From Crossaster papposus (lineage: Eukaryota; Echinodermata; Asteroidea; Velatida; Solasteridae), in assembly GCA_037893245.1 (NCBI GenBank), contig JBAIAA010000094.1:682001-746000 (forward strand): a stretch of DNA of 64,000 nt. Reading direction: 5' to 3'. This document shows, piece after piece, positions 18,854 to 45,495 of the stretch. The notes beneath the pieces are model-generated. The model was not told where the DNA came from, searched no databases, and saw only the letters and a program-made list of their open reading frames with translations. The first letter of the stretch is position 1; each line of letters begins with the position of its first letter. A program made the translations under genes and the position numbers.

Positions 18854-19380
18854 TTGAGGTTCCCAGCTAAGATATAAGTCGAGAAAATAATCCTCATTCG
18901 CAGCCACCTTTTCTGATGTGTATGTTTGTACACGTGTATTGCCGCATAGGCCTATGCCGCCAGTGGCCTGACACATGAGTCTCACGGTTTGGGTTGTTTC
19001 CAGTGAGAAGTTTGGCAATATGTTGGCTCAGATGTCGAGCTGGTGAGTGTCTCTTCATTCTCGAACAACGTTGAGGTACGCAGCTCAGATATAAGTCGAG
19101 AAAATTATCCTCATTCGCAGCCATGTTTTCTTATGTGTATCTATGTACACGTGTATTGCCGCATTGGCCTAGGTCGCCAGTGCCCTGACGCATGAGTCTC
19201 ACAGTTTGGGTTCTTTCCATTGAGAAATTTGGCAATATTTTGGCTCAGATGTCGAGCTGGTGAGTATCTCTTCATTCTCGAACAACGTTGAGGTTCCCAG
19301 CTAAGATTTAAGTCGAGAAAATAATCCTCATTCGCAGCCACTTTTTCTGATGTGTATGTTTGTACACGTGTATTGCCGCA
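13960..19380. repeat. 5.4-kb satellite segment repeated at about 21565–26985 (offset 7605)
   Basis: A block of about 5.4 kb, containing parts of the 3259- and 1521-bp HORs, is repeated nearly identically 7605 bp downstream. Private variants are retained, including AAGTCCAGAAAATAATCC at 14966 and 22571, TGTTTATACACG at 15666 and 23271, and TATGCCGACAGTGG at 17214 and 24819. It is a large recent segmental duplication within the satellite. Confidence 0.85.
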
Positions 19381-24800: not shown

Positions 24801-26639
24801 TGTATTGCCGCATAGGCCTATGCCGACAGTGGCCTGACGCATGAATCTCACAGTTTGGGTTCTTTCCATTGAGAAATTTTGGCAATATTTTGTCTAAGAT
24901 GTCGAGCTGGTGAATGTCTCTTCATTCTCGAACAACGTTGAGGTTCGCAGCTCAGATATAAGTCGAGAAAATTATCCTCATTCGCAGCCACCTTTTCTTA
25001 TGTGTATGTTTGTACACGTGTATTGCCGCATAGGCCTATGCCGCCAGTGGCCTGACACATGAGTCTCACGGTTTGGGTTGTTTCCAGTGAGAAGTTTGGC
25101 AATATGTTGGCTCAGATGTCGAGCTGGTGAGTGTCTCTTCATTGTCGAACAACGTTGATGTACGCAGCTCAGATATAAGTCGAGAAAATTATCCTCATTC
25201 GCAGCCATGTTTTCTTATGTGTATCTATGTACACGTGTATTGCCGCATTGGCCTAGGTCGCCAGTGCCCTGACGCATGAGTCTCACAGTTTGGGTTCTTT
25301 CCATTGAGAAATTTGGCAATATTTTGGCTCAGATGTCGAGCTGGTGAGTATCTCTTCATTCTCGAACAACGTTGAGGTTCCCAGCTAAGATTTAAGTCGA
25401 GAAAATAATCCTCATTCGCAGCCACTTTTTCTGATGTGTATGTTTGTACACGTGTATTGCCGCATAGTCCTATGCCGCCAGTGGCCTGACGCAGGAATCT
25501 CACGGTTTGGGTTCTTTTCCAGTGAGAAGTTTGGCAATATTTTGGCTCAGATGTCGAGCTGGTGAGTGTCTCTTCATTCTCGAACAACGTTGAGGTTCGC
25601 AGCTCAAATATAAGTCGAGAAAATTATCCTCATTCGCAGCCATGTTTTCTTATGTGTATCTATGTACACGTGTATTGGCGCATGGGCCTATGTCGCCAGT
25701 GCCCTGACGCACGAGTCTCACAGTTTGGGTTCTTTCCATTGAGAAATTTGGCAATATGTTGGCTCAGATGTCGAGCTGGTGAGTATCTCTTCATTCTCGA
25801 ACAACGTTGAGGTTCCCAGCTGAGATTTAAGTCGAGAAAATAATCCTCATTCGCAGCCACTTTTTCTGATGTGTATGTTTGTACACGTGTATTGCCGCAT
25901 AGGCCTATGCCGCCAGTGGCCTGACGCAGGAATCTCACAGTTTGGGTTCTTTCCATTGAGAAATTTGGCAATATTTTGTCTAAGATGTCGAGCTGGTGAG
26001 TGTCTCTTCATTCTCAAACAACGTTGAGGTTCGCAGCTCAGATATAAGTCGAGAAAACTATCCTCATTCGCAGCCCTGTTTTCTTATGTGTATCTATGTA
26101 CACGTGTATTGGCGCATGGGCCTGGGTCGCCAGTGCCCTGACGCACGAGTCTCACAGTTTGGGTTCTTTCCATTGAGAAATTTGGCAATAATTTGGCTCA
26201 GATGTCGAGCTGGTGAGCAACGCTTCATTCTCGAACAACGTTGAGGTTCCCAGCTAAGATATAAGTCGAGAAAATAATCCTCATTCGCAGCCACCTTTTC
26301 TGATGTGTATGTTTGTACACGTGTATTGCCGCATAGGCCTATGCCGCCAGTGGCCTGACGCATGAATCTCACAGTTTGGGTTCTTTCCATTGATAAATTT
26401 TGGCAATATTTTGTCTAAGATGTCGAGCTGGTGAATGTCTCTTCATTCTCGAACAACGTTGAGGTTCCCAGCTAAGATATAAGTCGAGAAAATAATCCTC
26501 ATTCGCAGCCACCTTTTCTGATGTGTATGTTTGTACACGTGTATTGCCGCATAGGCCTATGCCGCCAGTGGCCTGACACATGAGTCTCACGGTTTGGGTT
26601 GTTTCCAGTGAGAAGTTTGGCAATATGTTGGCTCAGATG

Positions 26640-29600
26640 TCGAGCTGGTGAGTGTCTCTTCATTCTCGAACAACGTTGAGGTACGCAGCTCAGATATAAG
26701 TCGAGAAAATTATCCTCATTCGCAGCCATGTTTTCTTATGTGTATCTATGTACACGTGTATTGCCGCATTGGCCTAGGTCGCCAGTGCCCTGACGCATGA
26801 GTCTCACAGTTTGGGTTCTTTCCATTGAGAAATTTGGCAATATTTTGGCTCAGATGTCGAGCTGGTGAGTATCTCTTCATTCTCGAACAACGTTGAGGTT
26901 CCCAGCTAAGATTTAAGTCGAGAAAATAATCCTCATTCGCAGCCACTTTTTCTGATGTGTATGTTTGTACACGTGTATTGCCGCATAGGCCTATGCCGCC
27001 AGTGGCCTGACGCAGGAATCTCACAGTTTGGGTTCTTTTCCAGTGAAAAGTTTGGCAATATTTTGGCTCAGATGTCGAGCTGGTGAGTGTCTCTTCATTC
27101 TCGAACAACGTTGAGGTTCGCAGCTCAAATATAAGTCGAGAAAATTATCCTCATTCGCAGCCATGTTTTCTTATGTGTATCTATGTACACGTGTATTGGC
27201 GCATGGGCCTATGTCGCCAGTGCCCTGACGCACGAGTCTCACAGTTTGGGTTCTTTCCATTGAGAAATTTGGCAATAATTTGGCTCAGATGTCGAGCTGG
27301 TGAGTATCTCTTCATTCTCGAACAACGTTGAGGTTCGCAGCTCAAATATAAGTCGAGAAAATTATCCTCATTCGCAGCCACCTTTTCTTATGTGTTTGTT
27401 TGTACACGTGTATTGCCGCATAGGCCTATGTCGCCAGTGCCCTGACGCATGGGTCTCACAGTTTGGGTTCTTTCCAGTGGGAAATTTGGCAATATTTTGG
27501 CTCAGATGTCGAGCTGGTGAGTATCTTTTCATTCTCGAACAACGTTGAGGTTCCCAGCTAAGATATAAGTCGAGAAAATAATCCTCATTCGCAGCCACCT
27601 TTTCTGATGTGTATGTTTGTACACGTGTATGGCCGCATAGGCCTATGCCGCCAGTGGCCTGACGCATGAATCTCACAGTTTGGGTTCTTTCCATTGAGAA
27701 ATTTTGGCAATATTTTGTCTAAGATGTCGAGCTGGTGAATGTCTCTTCATTCTCGAACAACGTTGAGGTTCGCAGCTCAGATATAAGTCGAGAAAATTAT
27801 CCTCATTCGCAGCCACCTTTTCTTATGTGTATGTTTGTACACGTGTATTGCCGCATAGGCCTATGCCGCCAGTGGCCTGACACATGAGTCTCACGGTTTG
27901 GGTTGTTTCCAGTGAGAAGTTTGGCAATATGTTGGCTCAGATGTCGAGCTGGTGAGTGTCTCTTCATTCTCGAACAACGTTGAGGTACGCAGCTCAGATA
28001 TAAGTCGAGAAAATTATCCTCATTCGCAGCCATGTTTTCTTATGTGTATCTATGTACACGTGTATTGCCGCATTGGCCTAGGTCGCCAGTGCCCTGACGC
28101 ATGAGTCTCACAGTTTGGGTTCTTTCCATTGAGAAATTTGGCAATATTTTGGCTCAGATGTCGAGCTGGTGAGTATCTCTTCATTCTCGAACAACGTTGA
28201 GGTTCCCAGCTAAGATTTAAGTCGAGAAAATAATCCTCATTCGCAGCCACTTTTTCTGATGTGTATGTTTGTACACGTGTATTGCCGCATAGGCCTATGC
28301 CACCAGTGGCCTGACGCAGGAATCTCACAGTTTGGGTTCTTTCCATTGAGAAATTTGGCAATATTTTGGCTCAGATGTCGAGCTGGTGAGTGTCTCTTCA
28401 TTCTCGAACAACGTTGAGGTACGCAGCTCAGATATAAGTCGAGAAAATTATCCTCATTCGCAGCCATGTTTTCTTATGTGTATCTATGTACACGTGTATT
28501 GCCGCATTGGCCTAGGTCGCCAGTGCCCTGACGCATGAGTCTCACAGTTTGGGTTCTTTCCATTGAGAAATTTGGCAATATTTTGGCTCAGATGTCGAGC
28601 TGGTGAGTATCTCTTCATTCTCGAACAACGTTGAGGTTCCCAGCTAAGATTTAAGTCGAGAAAATAATCCTCATTCGCAGCCACTTTTTCTGATGTGTAT
28701 GTTTGTACACGTGTATTGCCGCATAGGCCTATGCCGCCAGTGGCCTGACGCAGGAATCTCACAGTTTGGGTTCTTTTCCAGTGAAAAGTTTGGCAATATT
28801 TTGGCTCAGATGTCGAGCTGGTGAGTGTCTCTTCATTCTCGAACAACGTTGAGGTTCGCAGCTCAAATATAAGTCGAGAAAATTATCCTCATTCGCAGCC
28901 ATGTTTTCTTATGTGTATCTATGTACACGTGTATTGGCGCATGGGCCTATGTCGCCAGTGCCCTGACGCACGAGTCTCACAGTTTGGGTTCTTTCCATTG
29001 AGAAATTTGGCAATAATTTGGCTCAGATGTCGAGCTGGTGAGTATCTCTTCATTCTCGAACAACGTTGAGGTTCGCAGCTCAAATATAAGTCGAGAAAAT
29101 TATCCTCATTCGCAGCCACCTTTTCTTATGTGTTTGTTTGTACACGTGTATTGCCGCATAGGCCTATGTCGCCAGTGCCCTGACGCATGGGTCTCACAGT
29201 TTGGGTTCTTTCCAGTGGGAAATTTGGCAATATTTTGGCTCAGATGTCGAGCTGGTGAGTATCTCTTCATTCTCGAACAACGTTGAGGTTCCCAGCTAAG
29301 ATATAAGTCGAGAAAATAATCCTCATTCGCAGCCACCTTTTCTGATGTGTATGTTTGTACACGTGTATGGCCGCATAGGCCTATGCCGCCAGTGGCCTGA
29401 CGCATGAATCTCACAGTTTGGGTTCTTTCCATTGAGAAATTTTGGCAATATTTTGTCTAAGATGTCGAGCTGGTGAATGTCTCTTCATTCTCGAACAACG
29501 TTGAGGTTCGCAGCTCAGATATAAGTCGAGAAAATTATCCTCATTCGCAGCCACCTTTTCTTATGTGTATGTTTGTACACGTGTATTGCCGCATAGGCCT

Positions 29601-30770
29601 ATGCCGCCAGTGGCCTGACACATGAGTCTCACGGTTTGGGTTGTTTCCAGTGAGAAGTTTGGCAATATGTTGGCTCAGATGTCGAGCTGGTGAGTGTCTC
29701 TTCATTCTCGAACAACGTTGAGGTACGCAGCTCAGATATAAGTCGAGAAAATTATCCTCATTCGCAGCCATGTTTTCTTATGTGTATCTATGTACACGTG
29801 TATTGCCGCATTGGCCTAGGTCGCCAGTGCCCTGACGCATGAGTATCACAGTTTGGGTTCTTTCCATTGAGAAATTTGGCAATATTTTGGCTCAGATGTC
29901 GAGCTGGTGAGTATCTCTTCATTCTCGAACAACGTTGAGGTTCCCAGCTAAGATTTAAGTCGAGAAAATAATCCTCATTCGCAGCCACTTTTTCTGATGT
30001 GTATGTTTGTACACGTGTATTGCCGCATAGGCCTATGCCACCAGTGGCCTGACGCAGGAATCTCACAGTTTGGGTTCTTTCCATTGAGAAATTTGGCAAT
30101 ATTTTGGCTCAGATGTCGAGCTGGTGAGTGTCTCTTCATTCTCGAACAACGTTGAGGTACGCAGCTCAGATATAAGTCGAGAAAATTATCCTCATTCGCA
30201 GCCATGTTTTCTTATGTGTATCTATGTACACGTGTATTGCCGCATTGGCCTAGGTCGCCAGTGCCCTGACGCATGTGTCTCACAGTTTGGGTTCTTTCCA
30301 TTGAGAAATTTGGCAATATTTTGGCTCAGATGTCGAGCTGGTGAGTATCTCTTCATTCTCGAACAACGTTGAGGTTCCCAGCTAAGATTTAAGTCGAGAA
30401 AATAATCCTCATTCGCAGCCACTTTTTCTGATGTGTATGTTTGTACACGTGTATTGCCGCATAGGCCTATGCCGCCAGTGGCCTGACGCAGGAATCTCAC
30501 AGTTTGGGTTTTTTTCCAGTGAGAAGTTTGGCAATATTTTGGCTCAGATGTCGAGCTGGTGAGTGTCTCTTCATTCTCGAACAACGTTGAGGTTCGCAGC
30601 TCAAATATAAGTCGAGAAAATTATCCTCATTCGCAGCCATGTTTTCTTATGTGTATCTATGTACACGTGTATTGGCGCATGGGCCTATGTCGCCAGTGCC
30701 CTGACGCACGAGTCTCACAGTTTGGGTTCTTTCCATTGAGAAATTTGGCAATAATTTGGCTCAGATGTCG
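26640..30770. repeat. Eight-monomer HOR, period 1738 bp
   Basis: About 2.4 copies of an eight-monomer block (8 x 217 plus 2). Variants repeated at this spacing include GTATGGCCGCATAGG, TATGCCACCAGTGG (28299 and 30037) and the acceptor-like TTTTCCAGTGAAAAG. The last partial copy has diverged. Confidence 0.8.
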
Positions 30771-33700
30771 AGCTGGTGAGTGTCTCTTCATTCTCGAACA
30801 ACGTTGAGGTTCGCAGCTAAGATATAAGTCGAGAAAATTATCCTCATTCGCAGCCACCTTTTCTTATGTGTATGTTTGTACATGTGTATTGCCGCATAGG
30901 CCTATGCCGCCAGTGGCCTGACGCATGAGTCTCACGGTTTGGTTTTTTTTCCAGTGAGAAGTTTGGCAATATTTTGGCTCAGATGTTGAGCTGGTGAGTG
31001 TCTCTTCATTGTCGAACAACGTTGAGGTTCGCAGCTCAGATATAAGTCGAGAAAATTATCCTCATTCGCAGCCATGTTTTCTTATGTGTATCTATGTACA
31101 CGTGTATTGCCGCATTGGCCTATGTCGCCAGTGCCCTAACGCATGAGTCTCTCAGTTTGGGTTCTTTCCATTGAGAAATGTTGCAATAGTTTGGCTCAGA
31201 TGTCGAGCTGGTGAGTGTCTCTTCATTCTCGTACAACGTTGAGGTTCGCAGCTCAAATATAAGTCGAAAAAATTATCCTCATTCGCAGCCACCTTTTCTG
31301 ATGTGTATGTTTGTACACTTGTATTGCCGCATAGGCCTATGCCGTCAGTGCCCTGACTCATGAGTCTCACAGTTTGGGTTCTTTCCATTGAGAAATTTGG
31401 CAATATTTTGGCTCAGATGTCGAGCTGGTGAATGTCTCTTCATTCTCGAACAACGTTGAGGTTCGCAGCTCAGATATAAGTCGAGAAAATTATCCTCATT
31501 CGCAGCCACCTTTTCTTATGTGTATGTTTGTACACGTGTATTGCCGCATAGGCCTATGCCGCCAGTGGCCTGACACATGAGTCTCACGGTTTGGGTTGTT
31601 TCCAGTGAGAAGTTTGGCAATATGTTGGCTCAGATGTCGAGCTGGTGAGTGTCTCTTCATTCTCGAACAACGTTGAGGTACGCAGCTCAGATATAAGTCG
31701 AGAAAATTATCCTCATTCGCAGCCATGTTTTCTTATGTGTATCTATGTACACGTGTATTGCCGCATTGGCCTATGTCGCCAGTGCCCTGACGCATGAGTC
31801 TCACAGTTTGGGTTCTTTCCATTGAGAAATTTGGCAATATTTTGGCTCAGATGTCGAGCTGGTGAGTATCTCTTCATTCTCGAACAACGTTGAGGTTCCC
31901 AGCTAATATTTAAGTCGAGAAAATAATCCTCATTCGCAGCCACTTTTTCTGATGTGTATGTTTGTACACGTGTATTGCCGCATAGGCCTATGCCGCCAGT
32001 GGCCTGACGCAGGAATCTCACAGTTTGGGTTCTTTCCATTGAGAAATTTGGCAATATTTTGTCTAAGATGTCGAGCTGGTGAATGTCTCTTCATTCTCAA
32101 ACAACGTTGAGGTTCGCAGCTCAGATATAAGTCGAGAAAATTATCCTCATTCGCAGCCCTGTTTTCTTATGTGTATCTATGTACACGTGTATTGGCGCAT
32201 GGGCCTATGTCGCCAGTGCCCTGACGCACGAGTCTCTCAGTTTGGGTTCTTTCCATTGAGAAATTTGGCAATAATTTGGCTCAGATGTCGAGCTGGTGAG
32301 TGTCTCTTCATTCTCGAACAACGTTGAGGTTCGCAGCTCAAATATAAGTCGAGAAAATAATCCTCATTCGCAGCCACCTTTTCTGATGTGTATGTTTGTA
32401 CACGTGTATTGCCGCATAGGCCTATGCCGTCAGTGCCCTGACTCATGAGTCTCACAGTTTGGGTTCTTTCCATTGAGAAATTTGGCAATATTTTGGCTCA
32501 GATGTCGAGCTGGTGAGTATCTCTTCATTCTCGAACAACGTTGAGGTTCCCAGCTGAGATTTAAGTCGAGAAAATAATCCTCATTGGCAGCCACTTTTTC
32601 TGATGTGTATGTTTGTACACGTGTATTGCCGCATAGGCCTATGCCGCCAGTGGCCTGACGCAGGAATCTCACAGTTTGGGTTCTTTCCATTGAGAAATTT
32701 GGCAATATTTTGTCTAAGATGTCGAGCTGGTGAGTGTCTCTTCATTCTCGAACAACGTTGAGGTACGCAGCTCAGATATAAGTCGAGAACATTATCCTCA
32801 TTCGCAGCCATGTTTTCTTATGTGTATCTATGTACACGTGTATTGCCGCATTGGCCTAGGTCGCCAGTGCCCTGACGCATGAGTCTCACAGTTTGGGTTC
32901 TTTCCATTGAGAAATTTGGCAATATTTTGGCTCAGATGTCGAGCTGGTGAGTATCTCTTCATTCTCGAACAACGTTGAGGTTCCCAGCTAAGATTTAAGT
33001 CGAGAAAATAATCCTCATTCGCAGCCACTTTTTCTGATGTGTATGTTTGTACACGTGTATTGCCGCATAGGCCTATGCCGCCAGTGGCCTGACGCAGGAA
33101 TCTCACAGTTTGGGTTCTTTCCATTGAGAAATTTGGCAATAGTTTGGCTCAGATGTCGAGCTGGTGAGTGTCTCTTCATTCTCGAACAACGTTGAAGTAC
33201 GCAGCTCAGATATAAGTCGAGAAAATTATCCTCATTCGCAGCCATGTTTTCTTATGTGTATCTATGTACACGTGTATTGCCGCATTGGCCTAGGTCGCCA
33301 GTGCCCTGACGCATGAGTCTCACAGTTTGGGTTCTTTCCATTGAGAAATTTGGCAATATTTTGGCTCAGATGTCGAGCTGGTGAGTATCTCTTCATTCTC
33401 GAACAACGTTGAGGTTCCCAGCTAAGATTTAAGTCGAGAAAATAATCCTCATTCGCAGCCACTTTTTCTGATGTGTATGTTTGTACACGTGTATTGCCGC
33501 ATAGGCCTATGCCGCCAGTGGCCTGACGCAGGAATCTCACAGTTTGGGTTCTTTCCATTGAGAAATTTGGCAATATTTTGGCTCAGATGTCGAGCTGGTG
33601 AGTGTCTCTTCATTCTCGAACAACGTTGAGGTTCGCAGCTTAAATATAAGTCGAGAAAATTATCCTCATTCGCAGCCACCTTTTCTGATGTGTATGTTTG

Positions 33701-34391
33701 TACACTTGTATTGCCGCATAGGCCTATGCCGTCAGTGCCCTGACGCATGGGTCTCACGGTTTGGGTTTTTTCCAGTGAGAAATTTGGCAATATTTTGGCT
33801 CCGATGTCGATCTGGTGAGTGTCTCTTCATTCTCGAACAACGTTGAGGTTCGCAGCTCAGATATAAGTCGAGAAAATTATCCTCATTCGCAGCCATGTTT
33901 TCTTATGTGTATCTATGTACACGTGTATTGCCGCATTGGCCTAGGTCGCCAGTGCCCTGACGCATGAGTCTCACAGTTTGGGTTCTTTCCATTGAGAAAT
34001 TTTGCAATATTTTGGCTCAGATGTCGAGCTGGTGAGTATCTCTTCATTCTCGAACAACGTTGAGGTTCCCAGCTAAGATTTAAGTCGAGAAAATAATCCT
34101 CCTTCGCAGCCACTTTTTCTGATGTGTATGTTTGTACACGTGTATTGCCGCATAGGCCTATGCCGCCAGTGGCCTGACGCATGAATCTCACAGTTTGGGT
34201 TCTTTCCATTGAGAAATTTGGCAATATTTTGTCTAAGATGTCGAGCTGGTGAATGTCTCTTCATTCTCGAACAACGTTGAGGTTCGCAGCTCAGATATAA
34301 GTCGAGAAAATTATCCTCATTCGCAGCCACCTTTTCTTATGTGTATGTTTGTACACGTGTATTGCCGCATAGGCCTATGTCGCCAGTGCCC
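30771..34391. repeat. Mixed satellite monomers bordering the insertion
   Basis: Monomers of several types with no long period I can establish. Mildly private variants occur, such as TGACTCATGAGTC (31352 and 32440), ATTGGCAGCC near 32583 and CCTTCGCAGCC near 34101. The final 300 bp closely matches about 43.4–43.7 kb and 45.15–45.45 kb in the right block, which links the two blocks' history. Confidence 0.75.
34383..34391 (+). repeat. Target-site duplication, left copy
   Basis: CCAGTGCCC immediately before the element; it belongs to the satellite consensus. The next base, T, is both the first base of the TIR and the satellite base in this position, so the duplication may be read as nine or ten bases. 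Confidence 0.88.
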
Positions 34392-34420
34392 TAGTCTAGT
34401 CCTAGACCCTTGTGTTATTT
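34392..34420 (+). repeat. Left terminal inverted repeat
   Basis: About 29 bp starting TAGTCTAGTCCTAGACC and ending TTGTGTTATTT. It aligns with the reverse complement of 37177–37207 with a few mismatches and small gaps. The first bases form a mini-hairpin: GTCTAG 34394–34399, TC, CTAGAC 34402–34407. Confidence 0.82.
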
Positions 34421-34735
34421 CGGCGCCCACGCGCGCAGATTCGTTAACGCTGTCTCTTTTTCAAATCCCGACTTCGTGTGCGTTGGTGTCTCACGCATGC
34501 GTAGTTTACATAATGCAGCTGGATCCATACTCGCACTGGAGCCGACGTTTGACAAACGTACATGATTTTGGATTCCCCAATGGGTCTAGCACTAGTTGGC
34601 AATCAATTGTTAACTTTAACCTTAGTTTTCGACGAATCTCCCTCGCTTTTCCGAGGGATCCAATCAGCGACCGAGTTTGAGCCTCATCATGAATTATTGA
34701 TTATACACAAATATAAGATACTGTGTGTGTGTACA
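34421..34735. other. Element interior, unique sequence, no gene
   Basis: No credible coding frame and no recognised family. Two short hairpins are visible: ACGTTTG-A-CAAACGT at 34545–34559, and TCCCTCG/CGAGGGA with a six-base loop at 34639–34658. This may be the remaining original body of the transposon. Confidence 0.6.
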
Positions 34736-34860
34736 CAAGACAGTGTACATGTACAACATTGTACATGTACAATGTACATGTATGTGATGGTGACTGTATG
34801 CACGTGCATTGCGCGAAATGTGCAGACTTTTAATAGCATTGTACATGTACGTGTGTCCGA
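34727..34860. repeat. GTACATGTAC-rich palindromic tract
   Basis: A run of GTGTGTGTACAC and overlapping TACATGTA motifs. It includes a perfect 20-bp palindrome at 34756–34775 (ACATTGTACA followed by its inverse). It is low-complexity DNA of a kind common between genes in several marine invertebrates. Confidence 0.8.
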
Positions 34861-35093
34861 TCTTCCGGGGCATGGCAGTGCAAGCTAGCTACAGCCACCG
34901 GTACCGTATCGCGGGTCTGCCCGCTGCAGCATCGCTATGTTATGGTGCTTCAGCGCGGTGCGTTTTTTTGTATTCCAGTGTATCGAACGTACAGTACGTC
35001 AGTATTAGCCTCAAATCTAGTGAGGTCGTGCTTCATTTTGGCAAACAGTTAATTACCTGTAAAAACTACCTTTCCCTGAAATAAAAGGGGACA
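34861..35093. other. Element interior, no gene or known feature
   Basis: Unique sequence with no convincing frame. A small hairpin GCGGG-TCTG-CCCGC lies near 34912. Nothing else is recognised before the foldback structure that follows. Confidence 0.55.
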
Positions 35094-35627
35094 TTTATGG
35101 TGGCTCTGCATGGAGGGACATAAAAGTCGTGAATTTGTTTGCGAGTAGTTGTGAAACTATTCGCGACTTGTCGTGAATTTATTCGCGACTGGTTGTTAAT
35201 ATTTTTGCGACTGTTCGTGAATATTTTTGCGACTAGTCGTATAATTCGTGATTATTAGTGAATTTTTTCGCTACTAGTCGCGAATTTTTTTCGCGACTAT
35301 TGAAAATATTGACGACTATTCGCGAACAAATATTTACGACTAGTCGCAAAAAACAAGTCGTAAAAAATTCAGGACTCAAATTTGCGACTTGTCGTTAATT
35401 TATTTGCGACTGGTCGTAAATATTTTTGCAACTAGTCGCAAATAATTTCACAACTAGTCGTGACAAAATTCGCGACTAGTCGCAAATTTTGTCACGACTA
35501 GTTGTGAAATTATTTGCGACTAGTTGCAAAAATATTTACGACCAGTCGCAAATAAATTAACGACAAGTCGCAAATTTGTCGTGAAAATGTTCACAACTTT
35601 TGATATCCCTCAGGGCCACCATATAAA
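35094..35627. mobile_element. Nested foldback/MITE-like element 1
   Basis: About 534 bp bounded by imperfect inverted ends: TATGGTGGCTCTG at 35096–35108 and CAGGGCCACCATA at 35611–35623. Similarity extends inward (AGGGACATAAAAGT on the left; ACTTTTGATATCCCT on the right). The body is built almost wholly of short units around GCGACTAGTCG and TTGCGACTTGTCG, alternating with AT-rich links. The whole segment can fold on itself. The design, inverted arms made of short repeats, resembles foldback elements such as Drosophila FB and sea urchin TU; homology to either is not shown. No coding sequence is present. Confidence 0.75.
35380..35575. repeat. 196-bp near-perfect palindrome
   Basis: Two 98-base arms meet with no spacer between 35477 and 35478, in the middle of GACTAGTC. 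By eye the arms pair at 97 of 98 positions. The single mismatch is the C of AATTCGCG on the left, opposite the A in CGCAAATT on the right. The palindrome is expected to extrude a cruciform or fold as one long hairpin. Confidence 0.92.
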
Positions 35628-35632
35628 TTAGT

Positions 35633-36395
35633 AGCCCCAGTCCCACTGAAGCCGGATATGCTACGGATCGCCCCGGATCGCCCCGGATGAAACTACGTTT
35701 GATCCGGGGTGGTCCGGGAAGGAAATCAAAAACAAAGTGACATGTTCCCCGATCCTACTACGGTTCTACTACGGTTTGACTACGGTTCTGCCACGAATGG
35801 GCCCGGATCACCCCGGTTCAAGCCTGTTTTTCCCCCATGACCCCGGATGGTCACGGATTCACTACGGTTCCGCCACGGTTTCACTACGGATGCGCCACGG
35901 TTCATCCCGGATGTGCCACGGTTCACCCCGGATGACCCCGGATACACTACGGTTCATCCCGGTTAATCCGGGAAATACCGTGGTGACACCGTAGTGAATC
36001 CGTGGTGATCCGTAGTGGAACCGTAGTGGAACCAACTCCCGTTTCATCCTGGATAAACACGGTTACACTACGGTTACGCTACTTTTTATCCCGGATACAC
36101 TAGGGATCATCACGATCGCACTACGGTTTCACTACGGTTCTTCGCCGCCCCCCTCTCCCTTCCCGGATGGCCCCGGATCACTCCGGATGCTAGATGCTGA
36201 TCCAGGGTGACGCTCGACTTCCCGGACTCACTACGGATGTCCCCGGATGGTCCCGGATGCATGGCCCCGGATAGTCCCGGATAGTCCCGGATTATCACGG
36301 TTTGACTAAGGTTCCACTCCGGATGACCCCGGATATGAACCGTAGTGCATCCGGGTTGATCCGTAGCGTATCCGGCTTTCGGTGGGACTGGGGCT
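35633..36395. mobile_element. Nested foldback/MITE-like element 2
   Basis: About 763 bp with inverted ends. The left arm 35633–35669 starts AGCCCCAGTCCCACTGAAGC and reaches GCTACGGATC. The right arm 36358–36395 is its inverse (GATCCGTAGCGTATCCGGC to GGGACTGGGGCT) with about three differences. The interior is a degenerate array of 10–11 bp units of the form GGNTNNNNCCC/CACTACGGTTC, mostly CCCCGGAT- and CTACGGTT-like, with some inverted units (CCGTAGTGGAACC) around 35970–36030. Open frames of 85–106 codons here are repeat artefacts. No clear target duplication was found. Confidence 0.75.
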
Positions 36396-36488
36396 TTGGA
36401 GGTTTTCACCATAGAGCAAAGTTGTTTCAATCAACAAATTCACCCGCAGTCACAAATAAACGCCGGGGCAGCTATGATTTGCTGTGTC
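36396..36488. other. Short unique stretch in the element
   Basis: About 90 bp with no recognisable feature between foldback element 2 and the next TACATGTA tract. Confidence 0.5.
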
Positions 36489-36540
36489 AATGTACATGTA
36501 AAGTACATGTACATGTACATATGTACATGTACTGTATGGT
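36489..36540. repeat. TACATGTA tract with a 24-bp palindrome
   Basis: Overlapping GTACATGTAC motifs. Bases 36509–36532 form a perfect 24-bp palindrome centred on CATATG. Confidence 0.85.
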
Positions 36541-36680
36541 GCGAAATACGGTACCTCTGGAGACATGAACACAATGGGGACAATGGGAGTAAAAAGGTCT
36601 CCAAAGGGTGATTTATATTTAGGTCTCCATTAGGAATTTCACGAATTAGATGTTGGGATTGTACTTAAATTACTCAAAAG
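36541..36680. other. Element interior, no gene
   Basis: Unique sequence with a direct repeat AGGTCTCCA near 36596 and 36621. CTGGAGACATG near 36557 and CCATGTCTCC near 36858 are loosely inverted, which could mark the ends of another decayed nested element; the evidence is weak. Confidence 0.45.
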
Positions 36681-36736
36681 CTAGGGTTAGGATGTGGGTT
36701 AGGGTTAGTGTTTGGGTTAGGGTATAATATAGGGTA
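36681..36736 (+). repeat. Telomere-like TTAGGG patch
   Basis: Several GGGTTAGGGTTAG motifs interspersed with variants (GGATGTGGGTTAGGG, GTGTTTGGGTTAGGG). It is too short and degenerate to be a telomere end and lies inside the inserted element. TTAGGG is the usual metazoan telomere unit. Confidence 0.7.
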
Positions 36737-36891
36737 TATTGGTTGGAAATTTCAACCCAGGAAAATAATTGTGGTTAAAATGGGAGCATTTTGAAAAAAG
36801 TGCTCGACTTTCTAACCATTTTGTACACGAGAACATGTCATGTTCGGTAAGGGAAGCCATGTCTCCGTCCACAGTGATACAAAAATGCGAA
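36737..36891. other. Element interior with a nested hairpin, no gene
   Basis: AAAATGG...CCATTTT encloses GAGCA...TGCTC at about 36777–36826, a foldable structure of two nested short stems. No credible frame. Confidence 0.5.
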
Positions 36892-36930
36892 TACATGTAC
36901 AGTATAGTACATGTACAGTATAGTACATGC
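36892..36930 (+). repeat. 16-bp direct repeat, TACATGTACAGTATAG
   Basis: Two perfect tandem copies at 36892–36907 and 36908–36923, followed by a partial third (TACATGC). Confidence 0.9.
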
Positions 36931-37078
36931 ACATCACGGCCGGGTCAATCGCGGCGTGTAACGTTTTGCGTAACCCTCGTATCGCACGAATTTGCCTATA
37001 ACCGTCCATCATTATCACGTGATATGAATAATGCATATATTACAATAGTCTGACCACGCCCCCTGTGTGCCAACTTGT
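36931..37078. other. Element interior near the right end, no gene
   Basis: Unique sequence containing TATCACGTGATA near 37014, a 12-bp palindrome with a CACGTG core. Otherwise nothing is recognised. Confidence 0.5.
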
Positions 37079-37196
37079 CCAAGACCTTCGAGTGAGTCCA
37101 CTGAGTTCGCGGGTGCGATTCGTCTGTAGATAGCGCCCTCTATAACATCGGTGGTTTGTGTCAGTGATCGCGGAATAAACAACACGAAGGTCTTGG
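37079..37196. repeat. Subterminal inverted repeat in the element
   Basis: CCAAGACCTTCG at 37079–37090 is the perfect inverse of CGAAGGTCTTGG at 37185–37196, part of the right TIR. A TIR-like motif is therefore present a second time, in opposite orientation, about 100 bp inside the end. Such subterminal copies often serve as extra transposase binding sites; that role is inference here. Confidence 0.75.
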
Positions 37197-37207
37197 AACC
37201 AAGACTA
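37177..37207 (-). repeat. Right terminal inverted repeat
   Basis: Read on the minus strand it starts TAGTCTTGGTTCCAAGACC and continues TTCGTGTTGTTT. It carries its own terminal hairpin: GTCTTGG 37190–37196, AA, CCAAGAC 37199–37205. The hairpin position is the same as at the left end but the stem sequence differs. Confidence 0.82.
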
Positions 37208-37216
37208 CCAGTGCCC
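37208..37216 (+). repeat. Target-site duplication, right copy
   Basis: CCAGTGCCC immediately after the element, followed by the normal satellite continuation TGACGCATGAGTC. It is identical to the left copy. Confidence 0.88.
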
Positions 37217-37949
37217 TGACGCATGAGTCTCACAGTTTGTGTTCTTTCTATTGAGAAATTTGGCAATATTTTGGCTCAGATGTCGAGCTGGTGAGTGTCT
37301 CTTCATTCTCGAACAACGTTGAGGTTCGCAGCTCATATATAAGTCGAGAAATTTAAGCTCATTCGCAGCCACCTTTTCTGATGTGTATGTGTGTACACTT
37401 GTATTGCCGCATCGGCCTATGCCGCCAGTGCCCTGACGCATGGGTCTCACGGTTTGGGTTCTTTCCAGTGAGAAATTTGGCAATATTTTGCCTCAAATGT
37501 CGAGCTGGTGAGTGTCTCTTCATTCTCAAACAACGTTGATGTTCGCAGCTCAGATATAAGTCGAGAAAATTATCCTCATTCGCAGCCCTGTTTTCTTATG
37601 TGTATCTATGTACACGTGTATTGGCGCATGGGCCTATGTCGCCAGTGCCCTGACGCACGAGTCTCACAGTTTGGGTTCTTTCCATTGAGAAATTTGGCAA
37701 TAATTTGGCTCAGATGTCGAGCTGGTGAGTCTCGCTTCATTCTCGAACAACGTTGAGGTTCCCAGCTAAGATATAAGTCGAGAAAATAATCCTCATTCGC
37801 AGCCACCTTTTCTGATGTGTATGTTTGTACACGTGTATTGCCGCATAGGCCTATGCCGCCAGTGGCCTGACGCATGAATCTCACAGTTTGGGTTCTTTCC
37901 ATTGAGAAATTTTGGCAATATTTTGTCTAAGATGTCGAGCTGGTGAATG

Positions 37950-38410
37950 TCTCTTCATTCTCGAACAACGTTGAGGTTCGCAGCTCAGATATAAGTCGAG
38001 AAAATTATCCTCATTCGCAGCCACCTTTTCTTATGTGTATGTTTGTACACGTGTATTGCCGCATAGGCCTATGTCGCCAGTGGCCTGACGCAGGAATCTC
38101 ACAGTTTGGGTTCTTTCCATTGAGAAATTTGGCAATATTTTGGCTCAGATGTCGAGCTGGTGAGTGTCTCTTCATTCTCGAACAACGTTGAGGTTCGCAG
38201 CTTAAATATAAGTCGAGAAAATTATCCTCATTCGCAGCCACCTTTTCTGATGTGTATGTTTGTACACTTGTATTGCCGCATAGGCCTATGCCGTCAGTGC
38301 CCTGACGCATGGGTCTCACGGTTTGGGTTTTTTCCAGTGAGAAATTTGGCAATATTTTGGCTCCGATGTCAATCTGGTGAGTGTCTCTTCATTCTCGAAC
38401 AACGTTGAGG
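37950..38410. repeat. Satellite segment repeated at 40121–40590 and 42330–42760
   Basis: Two-monomer stretch present three times at offsets near 2171 and 2172 (ten monomers plus one or two). Shared variants include GCCAGTGGCCTGACGCAGG after CATAGGCCTATGTC, AGCTTAAATATAAG and the private GATGTCAATCTGGTGAG. Confidence 0.8.
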
Positions 38411-38769
38411 TTCGCAGCTCAAATATAAGTCGAGAAAATTATCCTCATTCGCAGCCATGTTTTCTTATGTGTATATATGTACACGTGTATTGCCGCATTG
38501 GCCTATGTCGCCAGTGCCCTGAAGCATGAGTCTCACAGTTTGGGTTCTTTCCGTTGAGAAATTTGGCAATATTTTGGCTCAGATGTCGAGCTGGTGAGTA
38601 TCTCTTCATTCTCGAACAACGTTGAGGTTCCCAGCTAAGATTTAAGTCGAGAAAATAATCCTCATTCGCAGCCACTTTTTCTGATGTGTATGTTTGTACA
38701 CGTGTATTGCCGTATAGGCCTATGCCGCCAGTGGCCTGACGCAGGAATCTCACAGTTTGGGTTTATTCC

Positions 38770-39530
38770 ATTGAGAAATTTGGCAATATTTTGGCTCAGA
38801 TGTCGAGCTGGTGAGTATCTCTTCATTCTCGAACAACGTTGATGTTCCCAGCTAAGATTTAAGTCGAGAAAATAATCCTCATTCGCAGCCACTTTTTCTG
38901 ATGTGTATGTTTGTACACGTGTATTGCCGCATAGGCCTATGCCGCCAGTGGCCTGACGCAGGAATCTCACAGTTTGGGTTCTTTCCATTGAGAAATTTGG
39001 CAATATTTTGGCTCAGATGTCGAGCTGGTGAGTGTCTCTTCATTCTCGAACAACGTTGAGGTTCGCAGCTTAAATATAAGTCGAGAAAATTATCCTCATT
39101 CGCAGCCACCTTTTCTGATGTGTATGTTTGTACACTTGTATTGCCGCATAGGCCTATGCCGTCAGTGCCCTGACGCATGGGTCTCACGGTTTGGGTTTTT
39201 TCCAGTGAGAAATTTGGCAATATTTTGGCTCCGATGTCGATCTGGTGAGTGTCTCTTCATTCTCGAACAACGTTGAGGTTCGCAGCTCAGATATAAGTCG
39301 AGAAAATTATCCTCATTTGCAGCCATGTTTTCTTATGTGTATCTATGTACACGTGTATTGCCGCATTGGCCTAGGTCGCCAGTGCCCTGACGCATGAGTC
39401 TCACAGTTTGGGTTCTTTCCATTGAGAAATTTTGCAATATTTTGGCTCAGATGTCGAGCTGGTGAGTATCTCTTCATTCTCGAACAACGTTGAGGTTCCC
39501 AGCTAAGATTTAAGTCGAAAAAATAATCCT
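38770..39530. repeat. Satellite segment repeated at about 41594–42350 (offset 2824)
   Basis: Thirteen monomers plus three bases apart. It shares CAACGTTGATGTTCCC, CTCCGATGTCGATCTGG and CATTTGCAGCCATG. Confidence 0.8.
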
Positions 39531-40101
39531 CATTCGCAGCCAGTTTTTCTGATGTGTATGTTTGTACACGTGTATTACCGCATAGGCCTATGCCGCCAGT
39601 GGCCTGACGCAGGAATCTCACAGTTTGTGTTCTTTCTATTGAGAAATTTGGCAATATTTTGGCTCAGATGTCGAGCTGGTGAGTGTCTCTTCATTCTCGA
39701 ACAACGTTGAGGTTCCCAGCTAAGATATAAGTCGAGAAAATAATCCTCATTCGCAGCCACCTTTTCTGATGTGTATGTTTGTACACGTGTATTGCCGCAT
39801 CGGCCTATGCCGCCAGTGGCCTGACGCATGAATCTCACAGTTTGGGTTCTTTCCATTGAGAAATTTTGGCAATATTTTGTCTAAGATGTCGAGCTGGTGA
39901 ATGTCTCTTCATTCTCGAACAACGTTGAGGTTCGCAGCTCAGATATAAGTCGAGAAAATTATCCTCATTCGCAGCCACCTTTTCTTATGTGTATGTTTGT
40001 ACACGTGTATTGCCGCATAGGCCTATGTCGCCAGTGGCCTGACGCAGGAATCTCACAGTTTGGGTTCTTTCCATTGAGAAATTTGGCAATATTTTGGCTC
40101 A

Positions 40102-40318
40102 GATGTCGAGCTGGTGAGTGTCTCTTCATTCTCGAACAACGTTGAGGTTCGCAGCTCAGATATAAGTCGAGAAAATTATCCTCATTCGCAGCCACCTTTT
40201 CTTATGTGTATGTTTGTACACGTGTATTGCCGCATAGGCCTATGTCGCCAGTGGCCTGACGCAGGAATCTCACAGTTTGGGTTCTTTCCATTGAGAAATT
40301 TGGCAATATTTTGGCTCA
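40102..40318 (+). repeat. Representative satellite monomer (217 bp)
   Basis: A typical intact copy. Its left neighbour 39885–40101 and the next start at 40319 are spaced at exactly 217. Motifs inside: GAGCTG 40108–40113 pairing with CAGCTC 40152–40157; CGAAC 40133–40137 pairing with GTTCG 40147–40151; palindrome CAACGTTG 40137–40144; palindrome TACACGTGTA 40217–40226, whose core CACGTG is an E-box-type hexamer; palindrome CATAGGCCTATG 40233–40244, which contains AGGCCT. The start at GATGTCGAG is arbitrary. Confidence 0.95.
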
Positions 40319-41549
40319 GATGTCGAGCTGGTGAGTGTCTCTTCATTCTCGAACAACGTTGAGGTTCGCAGCTTAAATATAAGTCGAGAAAATTATCCTC
40401 ATTCGCAGCCACCTTTTCTGATGTGTATGTTTGTACACTTGTATTGCCGCATAGGCCTATGCCGTCAGTGCCCTGACGCATGGGTCTCACGGTTTGGGTT
40501 TTTTCCAGTGAGAAATTTGGCAATATTTTGGCTCCGATGTCAATCTGGTGAGTGTCTCTTCATTCTCGAACAACGTTGAGGTTCGCAGCTCAGATATACG
40601 TCGAGAAAATTATCCTCATTCGCAGCCATGTTTTCTTATGTGTATCTATGTACACGTGTATTGCCGCATTGGCCTAGGTCGCCAGTGCCCTGACGCATGA
40701 GTCTCACAGTTTGGGTTCTTTCCATTGAGAAATTTGGCAATATTTTGGCTCAGATGTCGAGCTGGTGAGTATCTCTTCATTCTCGAACAACGTTGAGGTT
40801 CCCAGCTAAGATTTAAGTCGAGAAAATAATCCTCATTCGCAGCCACTTTTTCTGATGTGTATGTTTGTACACGTGTATTGCCGCATAGGCCTATGCCGCC
40901 AGTGGCCTGACGCAGGAATCTCACAGTTTGGGTTCTTTCCATTGAGAGATTTGGCAATAATGTGGCTCAGATGTCGAGCTGGTGAGTGTCTCTTCATTCT
41001 CGAACAACGTTGAGGTTCGCAGCTCAAATATAAGTCGAGAAAATTATCCTCATTCGCAGCCATGTTTTCTTATGTGTGTATATATGTACACGTGTATTGC
41101 CGCATTGGCCTATGTCGCCAGTGCCCTGAAGCATGAGTCTCACAGTTTGGGTTCTTTCCATTGAGAAATTTGGCAATATTTTGGCTCAGATGTCGAGCTG
41201 GTGAGTATCTCTTCATTCTCGAACAACGTTGAGGTTCCCAGCTAAGATTTAAGTCGAGAAAATAATCCTCATTCGCAGCCACTTTTTCTGATGTGTATGT
41301 TTGTACACGTGTATTGCCGTATAGGCCTATGCCGCCAGTGGCCTGACGCAGGAATCTCACAGTTTGGGTTTATTCCATTGAGAAATTTGGCAATATTTTG
41401 GCTCAGATGTCGAGCTGGTGAGTGTCTCTTCATTCTCGAACAACGTTGAGGTACGCAGCTCAGATATAAGTCGAGAAAATTATCCTCATTCGCAGCCATG
41501 TTTTCTTATGTGTATATATGTACACGTGTATTGCCGCATTGGCCTAGGT

Positions 41550-43590
41550 CGCCAGTGCCCTGACGCATGAGTCTCACAGTTTGGGTTCTTTCCATTGAGA
41601 AATTTGGCAATATTTTGGCTCAGATGTCGAGCTGGTGAGTATCTCTTCATTCTCGAACAACGTTGATGTTCCCAGCTAAGATTTAAGTCGAGAAAATAAT
41701 CCTCATTCGCAGCCACTTTTTCTGATGTGTATGTTTGTACACGTGTATTGCCGCATAGGCCTATGCCGCCAGTGGCCTGACGCAGGAATCTCACAGTTTG
41801 GGTTCTTTCCATTGAGAAATTTGGCAATATTTTGGCTCAGATGTCGAGCTGGTGAGTGTCTCTTCATTCTCGAACAACGTTGAGGTTCGCAGCTTAAATA
41901 TAAGTCGAGAAAATTATCCTCATTCGCAGCCACCTTTTCTGATGTGTATGTTTGTACACTTGTATTGCCGCATAGGCCTATGCCGTCAGTGCCCTGACGC
42001 ATGGGTCTCACGGTTTGGGTTTTTTCCAGTGAGAAATTTGGCAATATTTTGGCTCCGATGTCGATCTGGTGAGTGTCTCTTCATTCTCGAACAACGTTGA
42101 GGTTCGCAGCTCAGATATAAGTCGAGAAAATTATCCTCATTTGCAGCCATGTTTTCTTATGTGTATCTATGTACACGTGTATTGCCGCATTGGCCTAGGT
42201 CGCCAGTGCCCTGACGCATGAGTCTCACAGTTTGGGTTCTTTCCATTGAGAAATTTTGCAATATTTTGGCTCAGATGTCGAGCTGGTGAGTATCTCTTCA
42301 TTCTCGAACAACGTTGAGGTTCGCAGCTCAGATATAAGGCGAGAAAATTATCCTCATTCGCAGCCACCTTTTCTTATGTGTATGTTTGTACACGTGTATT
42401 GCCGCATAGGCCTATGTCGCCAGTGGCCTGACGCAGGAATCTCACAGTTTGGGTTCTTTCCATTGAGAAATTTGGCAATATTTTGGCTCAGATGTCGAGC
42501 TGGTGAGTGTCTCTTCATTCTCGAACAACGTTGAGGTTCGCAGCTTAAATATAAGTCGAGAAAATTATCCTCATTCGCAGCCACCTTTTCTGATGTGTAT
42601 GTTTGTACACTTGTATTGCCGCATAGGCCTATGCCGTCAGTGCCCTGACGCATGGGTCTCACGGTTTGGGTTTTTTCCAGTGAAAAATTTGGCAATATTT
42701 TGGCTCCGATGTCAATCTGGTGAGTGTCTCTTCATTCTCGAACAACGTTGAGGTTCGCAGCTCAGATATACGTCGAGAAAATTATCCTCATTCGCAGCCA
42801 TGTTTTCTTATGTGTATCTATGTACACGTGTATTGCCGCATTGGCCTAGGTCGCCAGTGCCCTGACGCATGAGTCTCACAGTTTGGGTTCTTTCCATTGA
42901 GAAATTTGGCAATATTTTGGCTCAGATGTCGAGCTGGTGAGTATCTCTTCATTCTCGAACAACGTTGAGGTTCCCAGCTAAGATTTAAGTCGAGAAAATA
43001 ATCCTCATTCGCAGCCACTTTTTCTGATGTGTATGTTTGTACACGTGTATTGCCGCATAGGCCTATGCCGCCAGTGGCCTGACGCAGGAATCTCACAGTT
43101 TGGGTTCTTTCCATTGAGAGATTTGGCAATAATGTGGCTCAGATGTCGAGCTGGTGAGTGTCTCTTCATTCTCGAACAACGTTGAGGTTCGCAGCTCAAA
43201 TATAAGTCGAGAAAATTATCCTCATTCGCAGCCATGTTTTCTTATGTGTATATATGTACACGTGTATTGCCGCATTGGCCTATGTCGCCAGTGCCCTGAA
43301 GCATGAGTCTCACAGTTTGGGTTCTTTCCATTGAGAAATTTGGCAATATTTTGGCTCAGATGTCGAGCTGGTGAGTATCTCTTCATTCTCGAACAACGTT
43401 GAGGTTCCCAGCTAAGATTTAAGTCGAGAAAATAATCCTCCTTCGCAGCCACTTTTTCTGATGTGTATGTTTGTACACGTGTATTGCCGCATAGGCCTAT
43501 GCCGCCAGTGGCCTGACGCATGAATCTCACAGTTTGGGTTCTTTCCATTGAGAAATTTGACAATATTTTGTCTAAGATGTCGAGCTGGTG
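41550..43590. repeat. 2-kb satellite segment repeated at 45890–47930 (offset 4340)
   Basis: The offset is exactly twenty monomers. Private variants kept in both include GATATAAGGCGAG, GATATACGTCGAG, GTCAATCTGGTGAG, ATTTGCAGCCATG and CAATAATGTGGCTC. Few differences are visible (for example CCATTTAG near 47237 against CCATTGAG). Confidence 0.85.
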
Positions 43591-44031
43591 AATGTCTCTT
43601 CATTCTCGAACAACGTTGAGGTTCGCAGCTCAGATATAAGTCGAGAAAATTATCCTCATTCGCAGCCACCTTTTCTTATGTGTATGTTTGTACACGTGTA
43701 TTGCCGCATAGGCATATGTCGCCAGTGCCCTGACGCATGAGTTTCACAGTTTGGGTTCTTTCTATTGAGAAATTTGGCAATATTTTGGCTCAGATGGCGT
43801 GCTGGTGAGTGTCTCTTCATTCTCGAACAACGTTGAGGTTCGCAGCTCATATATAAGTCGAGAAAGTTAAGCTCATTCGCAGCCACCTTTTCTGATGTGT
43901 ATGTGTGTACACTTGTATTGCCGCATAGGCCTATGCCGCCAGTGCCCTGACGCATGGGTCTCACGGTTTGGGTTCTTTCCAGTGAGAAATTTGGCAATAT
44001 TTTGCCTCAAATCTCGAGCTGGTGAGTGTCT
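43345..44031. repeat. Satellite segment repeated at 45081–45767 (offset 1736)
   Basis: Exactly eight monomers apart. Shared variants include TTTGACAATATTTTGTC, GCATAGGCATATGTC, GAGTTTCACAG, AGATGGCG and CATATATAAGTCGAG. Both copies hold an uninterrupted version of the site used by the 2816-bp insertion. Confidence 0.85.
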
Positions 44032-44239
44032 CTTCATTCTCGAACAACGTTGAGGTTCCCAGCTAAGATTTAAGTCGAGAAAATAATCCTCATTCGCAGC
44101 CACTTTTTCTGATGTGTATGTTTGTACACGTGTATTGCCGTATAGGCCTATGCCGCCAGTGGCCTGACGCAGGAATCTCACAGTTTGGGTTTATTCCATT
44201 GAGAAATTTGGCAATATTTTGGCTCAGATGTCGAGCTGG

Positions 44240-45495
44240 TGAGTGTCTCTTCATTCTCGAACAACGTTGAGGTACGCAGCTCAGATATAAGTCGAGAAAA
44301 TTATCCTCATTCGCAGCCATGTTTTCTTATGTGTATCTATGTACACGTGTATTGCCGCATTGGCCTAGGTCGCCAGTGCCCTGACGCATGAGTCTCACAG
44401 TTTGGGTTCTTTCCATTGAGAAATTTGGCAATATTTTGGCTCAGATGTCGAGCTGGTGAGTATCTCTTCATTCTCGAACAACGTTGATGTTCCCAGCTAA
44501 GATTTAAGTCGAGAAAATAATCCTCATTCGCAGCCACTTTTTCTGATGTGTATGTTTGTACACGTGTATTGCCGCATAGGCCTATGCCGCCAGTGGCCTG
44601 ACGCAGGAATCTCACAGTTTGGGTTCTTTCCATTGAGAAATTTGGCAATATTTTGGCTCAGATGTCGAGCTGGTGAGTGTCTCTTCATTCTCGAACAACG
44701 TTGAGGTTCGCAGCTTAAATATAAGTCGAGAAAATGATCCTCATTCGCAGCCACCTTTTCTGATGTGTATGTTTGTACACTTGTATTGCCGCATAGGCCT
44801 ATGCCGTCAGTGCCCTGACGCATGGGTCTCACGGTTTGGGTTTTTTCCAGTGAGAAATTTGGCAATATTTTGGCTCCGATGTCGATCTGGTGAGTGTCTC
44901 TTCATTCTCGAACAACGTTGAGGTTCGCAGCTCAGATATAAGTCGAGAAAATTATCCTCATTTGCAGCCATGTTTTCTTATGTGTATCTATGTACACGTG
45001 TATTGCCGCATTGGCCTAGGTCGCCAGTGCCCTGACGCATGAGTCTCACAGTTTGGGTTCTTTCCATTGAGAAATTTTGCAATATTTTGGCTCAGATGTC
45101 GAGCTGGTGAGTATCTCTTCATTCTCGAACAACGTTGAGGTTCCCAGCTAAGATTTAAGTCGAGAAAATAATCCTCCTTCGCAGCCACTTTTTCTGATGT
45201 GTATGTTTGTACACGTGTATTGCCGCATAGGCCTATGCCGCCAGTGGCCTGACGCATGAATCTCACAGTTTGGGTTCTTTCCATTGAGAAATTTGACAAT
45301 ATTTTGTCTAAGATGTCGAGCTGGTGAATGTCTCTTCATTCTCGAACAACGTTGAGGTTCGCAGCTCAGATATAAGTCGAGAAAATTATCCTCATTCGCA
45401 GCCACCTTTTCTTATGTGTATGTTTGTACACGTGTATTGCCGCATAGGCATATGTCGCCAGTGCCCTGACGCATGAGTTTCACAGTTTGGGTTCT
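44240..45495. repeat. Satellite segment repeated at 47929–49184 (offset 3689)
   Basis: Exactly seventeen monomers apart. Private shared variant: GAAAATGATCCTC at about 44731 and 48420. The match fades near CTATTGAG against CCATTGAG. Confidence 0.85.

What the first reader, a model, noticed from the sequence alone, without database searches (positions are those of the whole stretch)
34383..37216. Clean transposon insertion into a satellite monomer
The 2816-bp segment is flanked by CCAGTGCCC on both sides, has inverted ends starting TAGTCT, and its removal restores exactly 217 bp (3042 minus 2825). Few satellite interruptions are dated and bounded so precisely. It lacks any transposase-like frame. 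The 9–10 bp target duplication suits a Mutator-like element, but the terminal bases do not identify a family for me.
Basis: partly seen in the sequence, partly recalled or inferred. Interest (0 to 1): 0.72.

Follow-up and report, generated by a model that had tools for sequence, protein, structure and literature searches.

The report
Transposon that picks one satellite position
A 2.8-kb non-coding jumping element sits cleanly inside a 217-bp tandem repeat; it belongs to a large family whose examined copies duplicate 9 bases and favour a palindromic target, which the repeat offers about once per unit, so several copies landed at that same spot.

Summary
Window 34392-37207 (2816 bp) lies inside one monomer of a 217-bp satellite, flanked on both sides by CCAGTGCCC; the monomer anchors around it are 3042 bp apart, so removing the element and one 9-mer restores 217 bp. 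It is one copy of an abundant non-autonomous DNA transposon family in an unnamed 1.02-Gb genome. In 10 of 10 loci holding both ends (the window's own included) the duplication is exactly 9 bp. Versions of about 300 bp share the ends. No transposase-like frame was found in it, and no element that could supply one; Mutator-like is the best guess, unproven.

New: insertions prefer a palindromic target, C three bases before and G three bases after the duplication. A matrix trained without satellite insertions puts the real satellite position first of 217 (8.59, next 4.49). Two of two other satellite insertions in the sample, and seven junctions in searches aimed at it, sit there, in both orientations. 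A new member of a known kind.

The parts
34383..34391 (+). left copy of the 9-bp target-site duplication CCAGTGCCC
34392..37207 (+). non-autonomous DNA transposon, 2816 bp
   Evidence: same boundaries in other genomic copies
34392..34420 (+). 5' terminal inverted repeat, 29 bp, imperfect
   Evidence: alignment of ends
37177..37207 (-). 3' terminal inverted repeat, 31 bp, imperfect
   Evidence: alignment of ends
34392..34581 (+). 5' segment kept in the ~300-bp short versions (element 1 to about 170-194)
37088..37207 (+). 3' segment kept in the short versions (element about 2694-2700 to 2816)
35377..35578 (.). 202-bp near-perfect palindrome, 200 of 202 positions self-complementary
35125..35570 (.). 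22-bp degenerate tandem repeats (CGACTAGTCG motif) overlapping the palindrome
35664..36375 (.). second block of short degenerate tandem repeats (CCCCGGAT / ACTACGGTT motifs)
37208..37216 (+). right copy of the 9-bp target-site duplication CCAGTGCCC
1..34382 (+). 217-bp satellite array left of the element (host array)
37217..64000 (+). 217-bp satellite array right of the element (host array)

Best explanation
This is a non-autonomous, terminal-inverted-repeat DNA transposon. Shown: it belongs to an abundant family with fixed ends, each insertion examined with both ends has an exact 9-bp duplication, and insertions follow a palindromic target preference (C at -3, G at +3; more weakly, C avoided at -1 and G avoided at +1, and G or C at both ends of the duplication). 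Inferred: a DDE transposase encoded elsewhere binds the ends in trans, cuts the element out, and joins it to target DNA with a 9-bp stagger; it acts as a symmetric dimer or higher complex, hence the palindromic target. The 217-bp satellite carries one strong match per monomer, so arrays act as repeated landing sites and independent copies land at the same monomer position, in either orientation. The most likely superfamily is Mutator-like (about 65%, from duplication length and end structure only).
For: Copies: besides the window's own, 25 rows at 94-98% identity covering element 1-2816 (23), 1-2776 (1) or 38-2816 (1), among the 40 scored of 4502 first-look candidates; 848 and 816 first-look candidates for the two 100-bp ends, 40 scored each. 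Duplication: 10 of 10 loci with both ends, plus L039 with ends 8.3 kb apart and GCCGCGGCC on both sides and L048 with GGCTGATGG on both sides. Target: among non-satellite insertions C at -3 in 25 of 31 (background 0.213) and G at +3 in 25 of 30 (background 0.199); in a leave-one-out test the true site ranked 1st of 84 local positions in 13 of 18 insertions and in the first two in 16 of 18. Satellite: a matrix trained without satellite insertions ranks the true position 1st of 217 (8.59, next 4.49), gives it 73% of predicted weight, and has its best position at 161-166 in 260 of 280 monomers of the window. Of 46 distinct duplications in the sample, 3 places have satellite flanks (L001 = this window, L007, L015), all at that position. 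Two searches aimed at it found seven 5' junctions, 3 in one orientation and 4 in the other. Short derivatives keep only element ~1-190 and ~2697-2816.
Against: No transposase partner was found. 79 MULE-domain matches are listed for the genome (150 of 225 candidates scored), but by eye none lies within about 59 kb of an element copy listed (lists that are themselves capped), and the one MULE gene read with flanks has no TAGTCT on either strand in 5.4 kb. The window's own site is a weak example of the target rule: it has T at -3 and A at +3 (its score, 5.61, is still the highest locally, next 4.80). The other copies were those most like the query, so divergence figures lean to young copies. The two junction searches could find only this one satellite position; they do not test specificity. 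Two of the seven junctions (C94:1965228 and 1974313, identical, 9 kb apart) may be one duplicated insertion, and the far ends of five of the seven were not seen.
Confidence: 0.8

Rival explanations
1. Same mode of movement, but the transposase is of another superfamily that makes duplications of about 8-9 bp (Merlin, P, hAT relatives, or an undescribed group).
For: No MULE gene was linked to these ends. A P-type transposase gene is present in this genome, inside an insert in a family copy. The ends TAGTCT... do not by themselves name a family.
Against: Exactly 9 bp in 10 of 10; P and hAT make about 8 bp according to PMC3706591 (passages). Maize Mu makes 9 bp and has G or C at both ends of the duplication (PMC2774946, passages), a bias also seen here.
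Confidence: 0.3
2. The satellite copies descend from one insertion that was spread by amplification and exchange of satellite arrays, not from repeated targeting.
For: Satellites can spread inserts (general knowledge); two junctions on C94 9 kb apart are identical.
Against: Both orientations occur. The 9-mers differ (CCAGTGCCC, CCAGTGTCC, and CCAGTATCC in reverse). The element copies differ: L007 is 96% and the seen half of L015 is 90-96% identical to the window copy. A matrix from non-satellite sites predicts the position.
Confidence: 0.07
3. The insert is an assembly error in a repeat array.
For: Satellite arrays are hard to assemble (general knowledge).
Against: The boundaries are those of copies in non-satellite DNA, and other contigs carry the same junction.
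Confidence: 0.02

Closest known systems
Maize Mu / Mutator superfamily (PMC2774946; abstract and passages seen)
   Same: 9-bp duplication; many non-autonomous classes sharing ends; symmetric target consensus SW::SWNNNNNWS::WS with G or C at both ends of the duplication.
   Different: Here the inverted repeat is about 30 bp, not about 215 bp; the strongest signal is C at -3 and G at +3, outside the duplication; no transposase is linked.
MuTAnT, Mutator-like elements targeting TA microsatellites in Medicago (PMC4486113; abstract seen)
   Same: Mutator-like family with short non-autonomous copies and a preference for a class of tandem repeat.
   Different: [quoted passage not shown] here only 3 of 46 sampled insertions are in the satellite, at one position of a 217-bp unit.
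Dada superfamily (PMC3706591; passages seen)
   Same: DNA transposons that insert at a fixed position of a multicopy target.
   Different: Dada makes 6-7 bp duplications, and the Dada-U6 and Dada-U1 families lack terminal inverted repeats; this family makes 9 bp, has them, and mostly inserts elsewhere.
Tetris foldback transposon of Drosophila virilis (PMC4079207; title and start of abstract in a listing only)
   Same: Link between a DNA transposon and satellite DNA.
   Different: There the transposon supplied the building blocks of a satellite; here the transposon lands in a satellite of different sequence.

Membership tests
TIR DNA transposon, non-autonomous | defined ends with inverted repeats, shared by dispersed copies | tested here: met
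TIR DNA transposon, non-autonomous | constant-length target-site duplication | tested here: met
   9 bp in 10 of 10 loci with both ends
TIR DNA transposon, non-autonomous | no transposase of its own | tested here: met
   longest frame 114 aa, 10 frames without Pfam match above cut-off
Mutator-like (MULE/MuDR) | target duplication of about 9 bp (8-11 recalled; 9 for maize Mu in PMC2774946) | tested here: met
   passages
Mutator-like (MULE/MuDR) | autonomous relative with a MULE-type DDE transposase between the same ends | tested here: inconclusive
   79 MULE matches listed, none seen near listed copies by eye; one of the 79 read with flanks, ends absent; three further MULE regions asked for, tool not answering (the first repeated without answer)
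Mutator-like (MULE/MuDR) | long inverted repeats (about 215 bp in maize Mu) | tested here: not met
   29/31 bp; MULEs with short repeats are known to me from recall only, so this is not decisive
Dada | 6-7 bp duplication; no terminal inverted repeats in the families described in the passages | tested here: not met
   against passages
P superfamily | about 8-bp duplication | tested here: not met
   passages
Merlin | IS1016-like transposase, 8-9 bp duplication (recalled) | not tested
   duplication length alone would allow it; no search made

The most novel reading that the evidence does not exclude
The family's transposase reads a palindromic target of about 17 bp so sharply that a satellite array, with one match per 217-bp unit, works as a renewable, harmless landing field for a DNA transposon: a safe haven created by the sequence rule alone. 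A bolder form is that the transposase belongs to a superfamily not yet described.
Probability: 0.12. Interest if true: 0.55.

Novelty: new member of a known kind. Interest (0 to 1): 0.36.

Why it matters
The target preference of a natural transposon was read from insertions in ordinary sequence and then used to predict, without fitting, where it lands inside a satellite; the true position came first of 217. This gives a plain sequence-level reason why a satellite can collect a particular transposon at a particular position, and arrays of similar monomers repeat the same experiment many times. Otherwise it is an ordinary non-autonomous DNA transposon.

Tried and rejected
Autonomous partner: L019/L039, L020/L040 and L022/L041 share at first sight only the first 209-364 bp of the element and looked like partners. 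L039 proved to be an element copy broken by nested inserts. The C273 copy (L020, L040, L043, L044, L052) has its two ends 35 kb apart with inserts between, one carrying a P-type transposase; the insert borders at element 330/363 show no clean duplication or inverted repeat, so it was rejected as the autonomous form. The C241 copy (L022/L041) holds other genes after element 364; the same 9-mer TTGGCTGAC flanks a 3' half on contig C153 (L065), so it is probably an insert within an element copy, not proven. The 10.3-kb unit on C11, a further candidate, could not be fetched. MULE gene L075 rejected for lack of the ends.

Rfam: no match at gathering score in 34100-37500. Repeated TAGTC/GACTA in the internal repeats (13 against a shuffle mean of 0.56) might suggest binding sites like the ends, but the repeats are not independent, so I make no claim. 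The titles listed by six paper searches (2 to 20 rows shown of up to 834) showed no description of this element or satellite; the library is open-access only and the organism is unknown, so this is weak evidence of absence.

Rows dropped before counts: 9-mers from misplaced or partial ends (GGGTGATCC in L012, AGCAATAAC in L017, ATGGTAGTC in L048/L049) and loci L039-L044 and L075 were left out of the target counts; satellite insertions were left out of training. The figure 'both 20' pairs 5' and 3' flanks by equal 9-mers, so it is no test of the duplication; one search is. At least one such pair (TTGGCTGAC) lies on two contigs. The satellite consensus was out of register; the flank test was repeated with the better one and gave the same loci.
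Full report
Observation. The segment is as described: 2816 bp at 34392-37207 in a 64-kb array of a 217-bp satellite. Of the 280 distances between the 281 monomer anchors found in the window, 226 are 217 and 45 are 218 bases, and the 226 monomers average 95% identity to their consensus. The only distance above 400 is 3042 bp, from 34220 to 37262. The element's ends form an imperfect 29/31-bp inverted repeat beginning TAGTCT. Because CCAGTGCCC is present 125 times in the window, the duplication here is not strong evidence alone.

Family. The whole element matches copies throughout an unnamed 1.02-Gb genome (40 of 4502 first-look candidates scored, so counts are lower bounds): 25 rows besides its own cover nearly all of it at 94-98% identity. 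Each 100-bp end has over 800 first-look candidates, and the 40 scored for each are 100% identical to the query. At, ten loci held both ends: L001 (this window), L002, L003, L006, L007, L008 and the short versions L023, L024, L027, L029. All ten have an exact 9-bp duplication, with ten different sequences. Later, L039 showed GCCGCGGCC on both sides of ends 8.3 kb apart, and the C273 copy shows GGTCCAACG at both ends about 35 kb apart, with other sequence lodged between. The script scored no duplication for L048/L049 because it placed the 5' end five bases inside a slightly altered terminus; GGCTGATGG stands on both sides.

Short versions. Six places hold versions that keep only about the first 170-194 and the last 117-123 bases; five measured are 297-321 bp long. 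Four that were aligned are almost identical except at the junction, which differs in each. The junctions cluster within a few bases on the right side; whether this reflects several deletions or one with later small changes is open. The kept segments presumably hold all sequence needed for movement (inference).

Internal anatomy. The element codes for nothing recognisable in the frames searched. It has two blocks of short degenerate repeats and a 202-bp palindrome, 35377-35578, 200 of 202 self-complementary; the stretch 35370-35590 folds at -119 kcal/mol as a DNA strand against a shuffle mean of -25.2 (z -26.6). Of 33 rows (two of them this same copy), 16 hold it at full length without gaps, 194-200 of 202 self-complementary; in the other 17 rows the best match is partial, gapped or altered. 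So it is widespread but not universal.

Age. Over the first 330 bp, 31 rows (the window copy, counted twice as E and L001, and 29 of the 36 others) differ by 0.5% on average; over the last 330 bp, 20 rows differ by 0.8% (a few rows are one place under two locus ids). These samples were picked by identity to the query, so they lean young. The family looks recently active on this scale, but no date can be given without a mutation rate.

Target preference. Taking one context per distinct insertion (46 distinct duplications; 34 with 5' and 32 with 3' flank), the strongest signal lies outside the duplication and is palindromic: -3 C in 26 of 34 and +3 G in 26 of 32. Without the three satellite insertions it is 25 of 31 (p 3e-12) and 25 of 30 (p 1.5e-13). 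Weaker signals, on 61 half-sites: C is rare at -1 (2 of 61, with G or A in 46), and the first base of the duplication is G or C in 44. Leaving out each of 18 non-satellite insertions in turn, the true site ranked 1st of 84 neighbouring positions in 13, 2nd in 3, and 5th and 7th in the other two.

The satellite. Applied to the satellite consensus, that matrix scores the CCAGTGCCC position 8.59 and the next best 4.49, first of 217. It carries 73% of the summed predicted weight, and the best position lies at 161-166 in 260 of 280 monomers of the window. In the sample, satellite flanks occur at three places: L001 (the query itself; L037 and L070 are the same place), L007 and L015 (repeated with a better consensus). 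All three are at this position; as the query chose itself, the independent count is 2 of 2. Searches made for this junction found seven: C94:716372, C337:3202782 and C9:3046783 in one orientation, C94:1965228, C94:1974313, C9:666643 and C646:1529522 in the other; these include the three just named. The window's own site is imperfect, T at -3 and A at +3, and scores 5.61 against 4.80 for the next local position. How much of the genome is satellite is unknown; the count was asked for but not answered. So preference for the position is supported; preference for the satellite as such is not tested, and 43 of 46 sampled insertions are elsewhere.

Mechanism. Shown: fixed ends, 9-bp duplication, palindromic target, no recognisable coding capacity. 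Inferred: action in trans by a DDE transposase, cuts staggered by 9 bp, symmetric target reading. A 9-bp duplication with G or C at its ends resembles maize Mu, whose consensus is SW::SWNNNNNWS::WS (PMC2774946, passages). The genome has many MULE matches (79 listed), so a source may be at hand, but no link was shown. The one MULE gene read with its surroundings has no TAGTCT in 5.4 kb.

Verdict. It is a new member of a known kind, with one pleasing twist: the satellite position is predicted by the target rule learned elsewhere.

Noticed in passing
L041 1472-3781 (-), 8267-9088 (+), 9298-9972 (+); G000:C241: Inside an element copy, after element base 364: a 769-aa frame weakly like a tyrosine recombinase (Phage_integrase 19.5 bits, below cut-off 27.1), a frame weakly like a rolling-circle replication protein (17.7, cut-off 27.8) and one weakly like a parvovirus-type helicase (18.1, cut-off 20); the first has no PDB match at E 0.1. 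Could be an unusual mobile element combining the three; not shown to be one unit.
   Followed up: partly
L040 4412-6343 (-) and 2657-2986 (-); G000:C273: P-type transposase pieces (TNP-like RNase H N 91.7 bits and C 38.8 bits) within a large insert in an element copy whose ends are 35 kb apart.
   Followed up: partly
window 35377-35578 and copies: A 202-bp near-perfect palindrome is kept at full length and nearly perfect in 16 of the 33 rows that match it; long palindromes are usually unstable (recalled), so its upkeep is curious.
   Followed up: partly
L023, L024, L027, L029, L048, L068: Short versions have junctions that differ but cluster within 7 bases on the right and 25 on the left: repeated deletion at one place, or one deletion altered later.
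   Followed up: no
L048/L049; G000:C305:2231192-2231680: Two short versions in inverted orientation share the same flanking sequence, apparently an inverted duplication of one insertion.
   Followed up: no
L075 (G000:C641:1684200-1689600): A 609-aa MULE-type frame sits near an array of short tandem repeats of over 1 kb.
   Followed up: no
window 36682-36723: Short stretch of repeats resembling telomere-type TTAGGG (unit TAGGGTTAGGATGTGGGT) inside the element.
   Followed up: no
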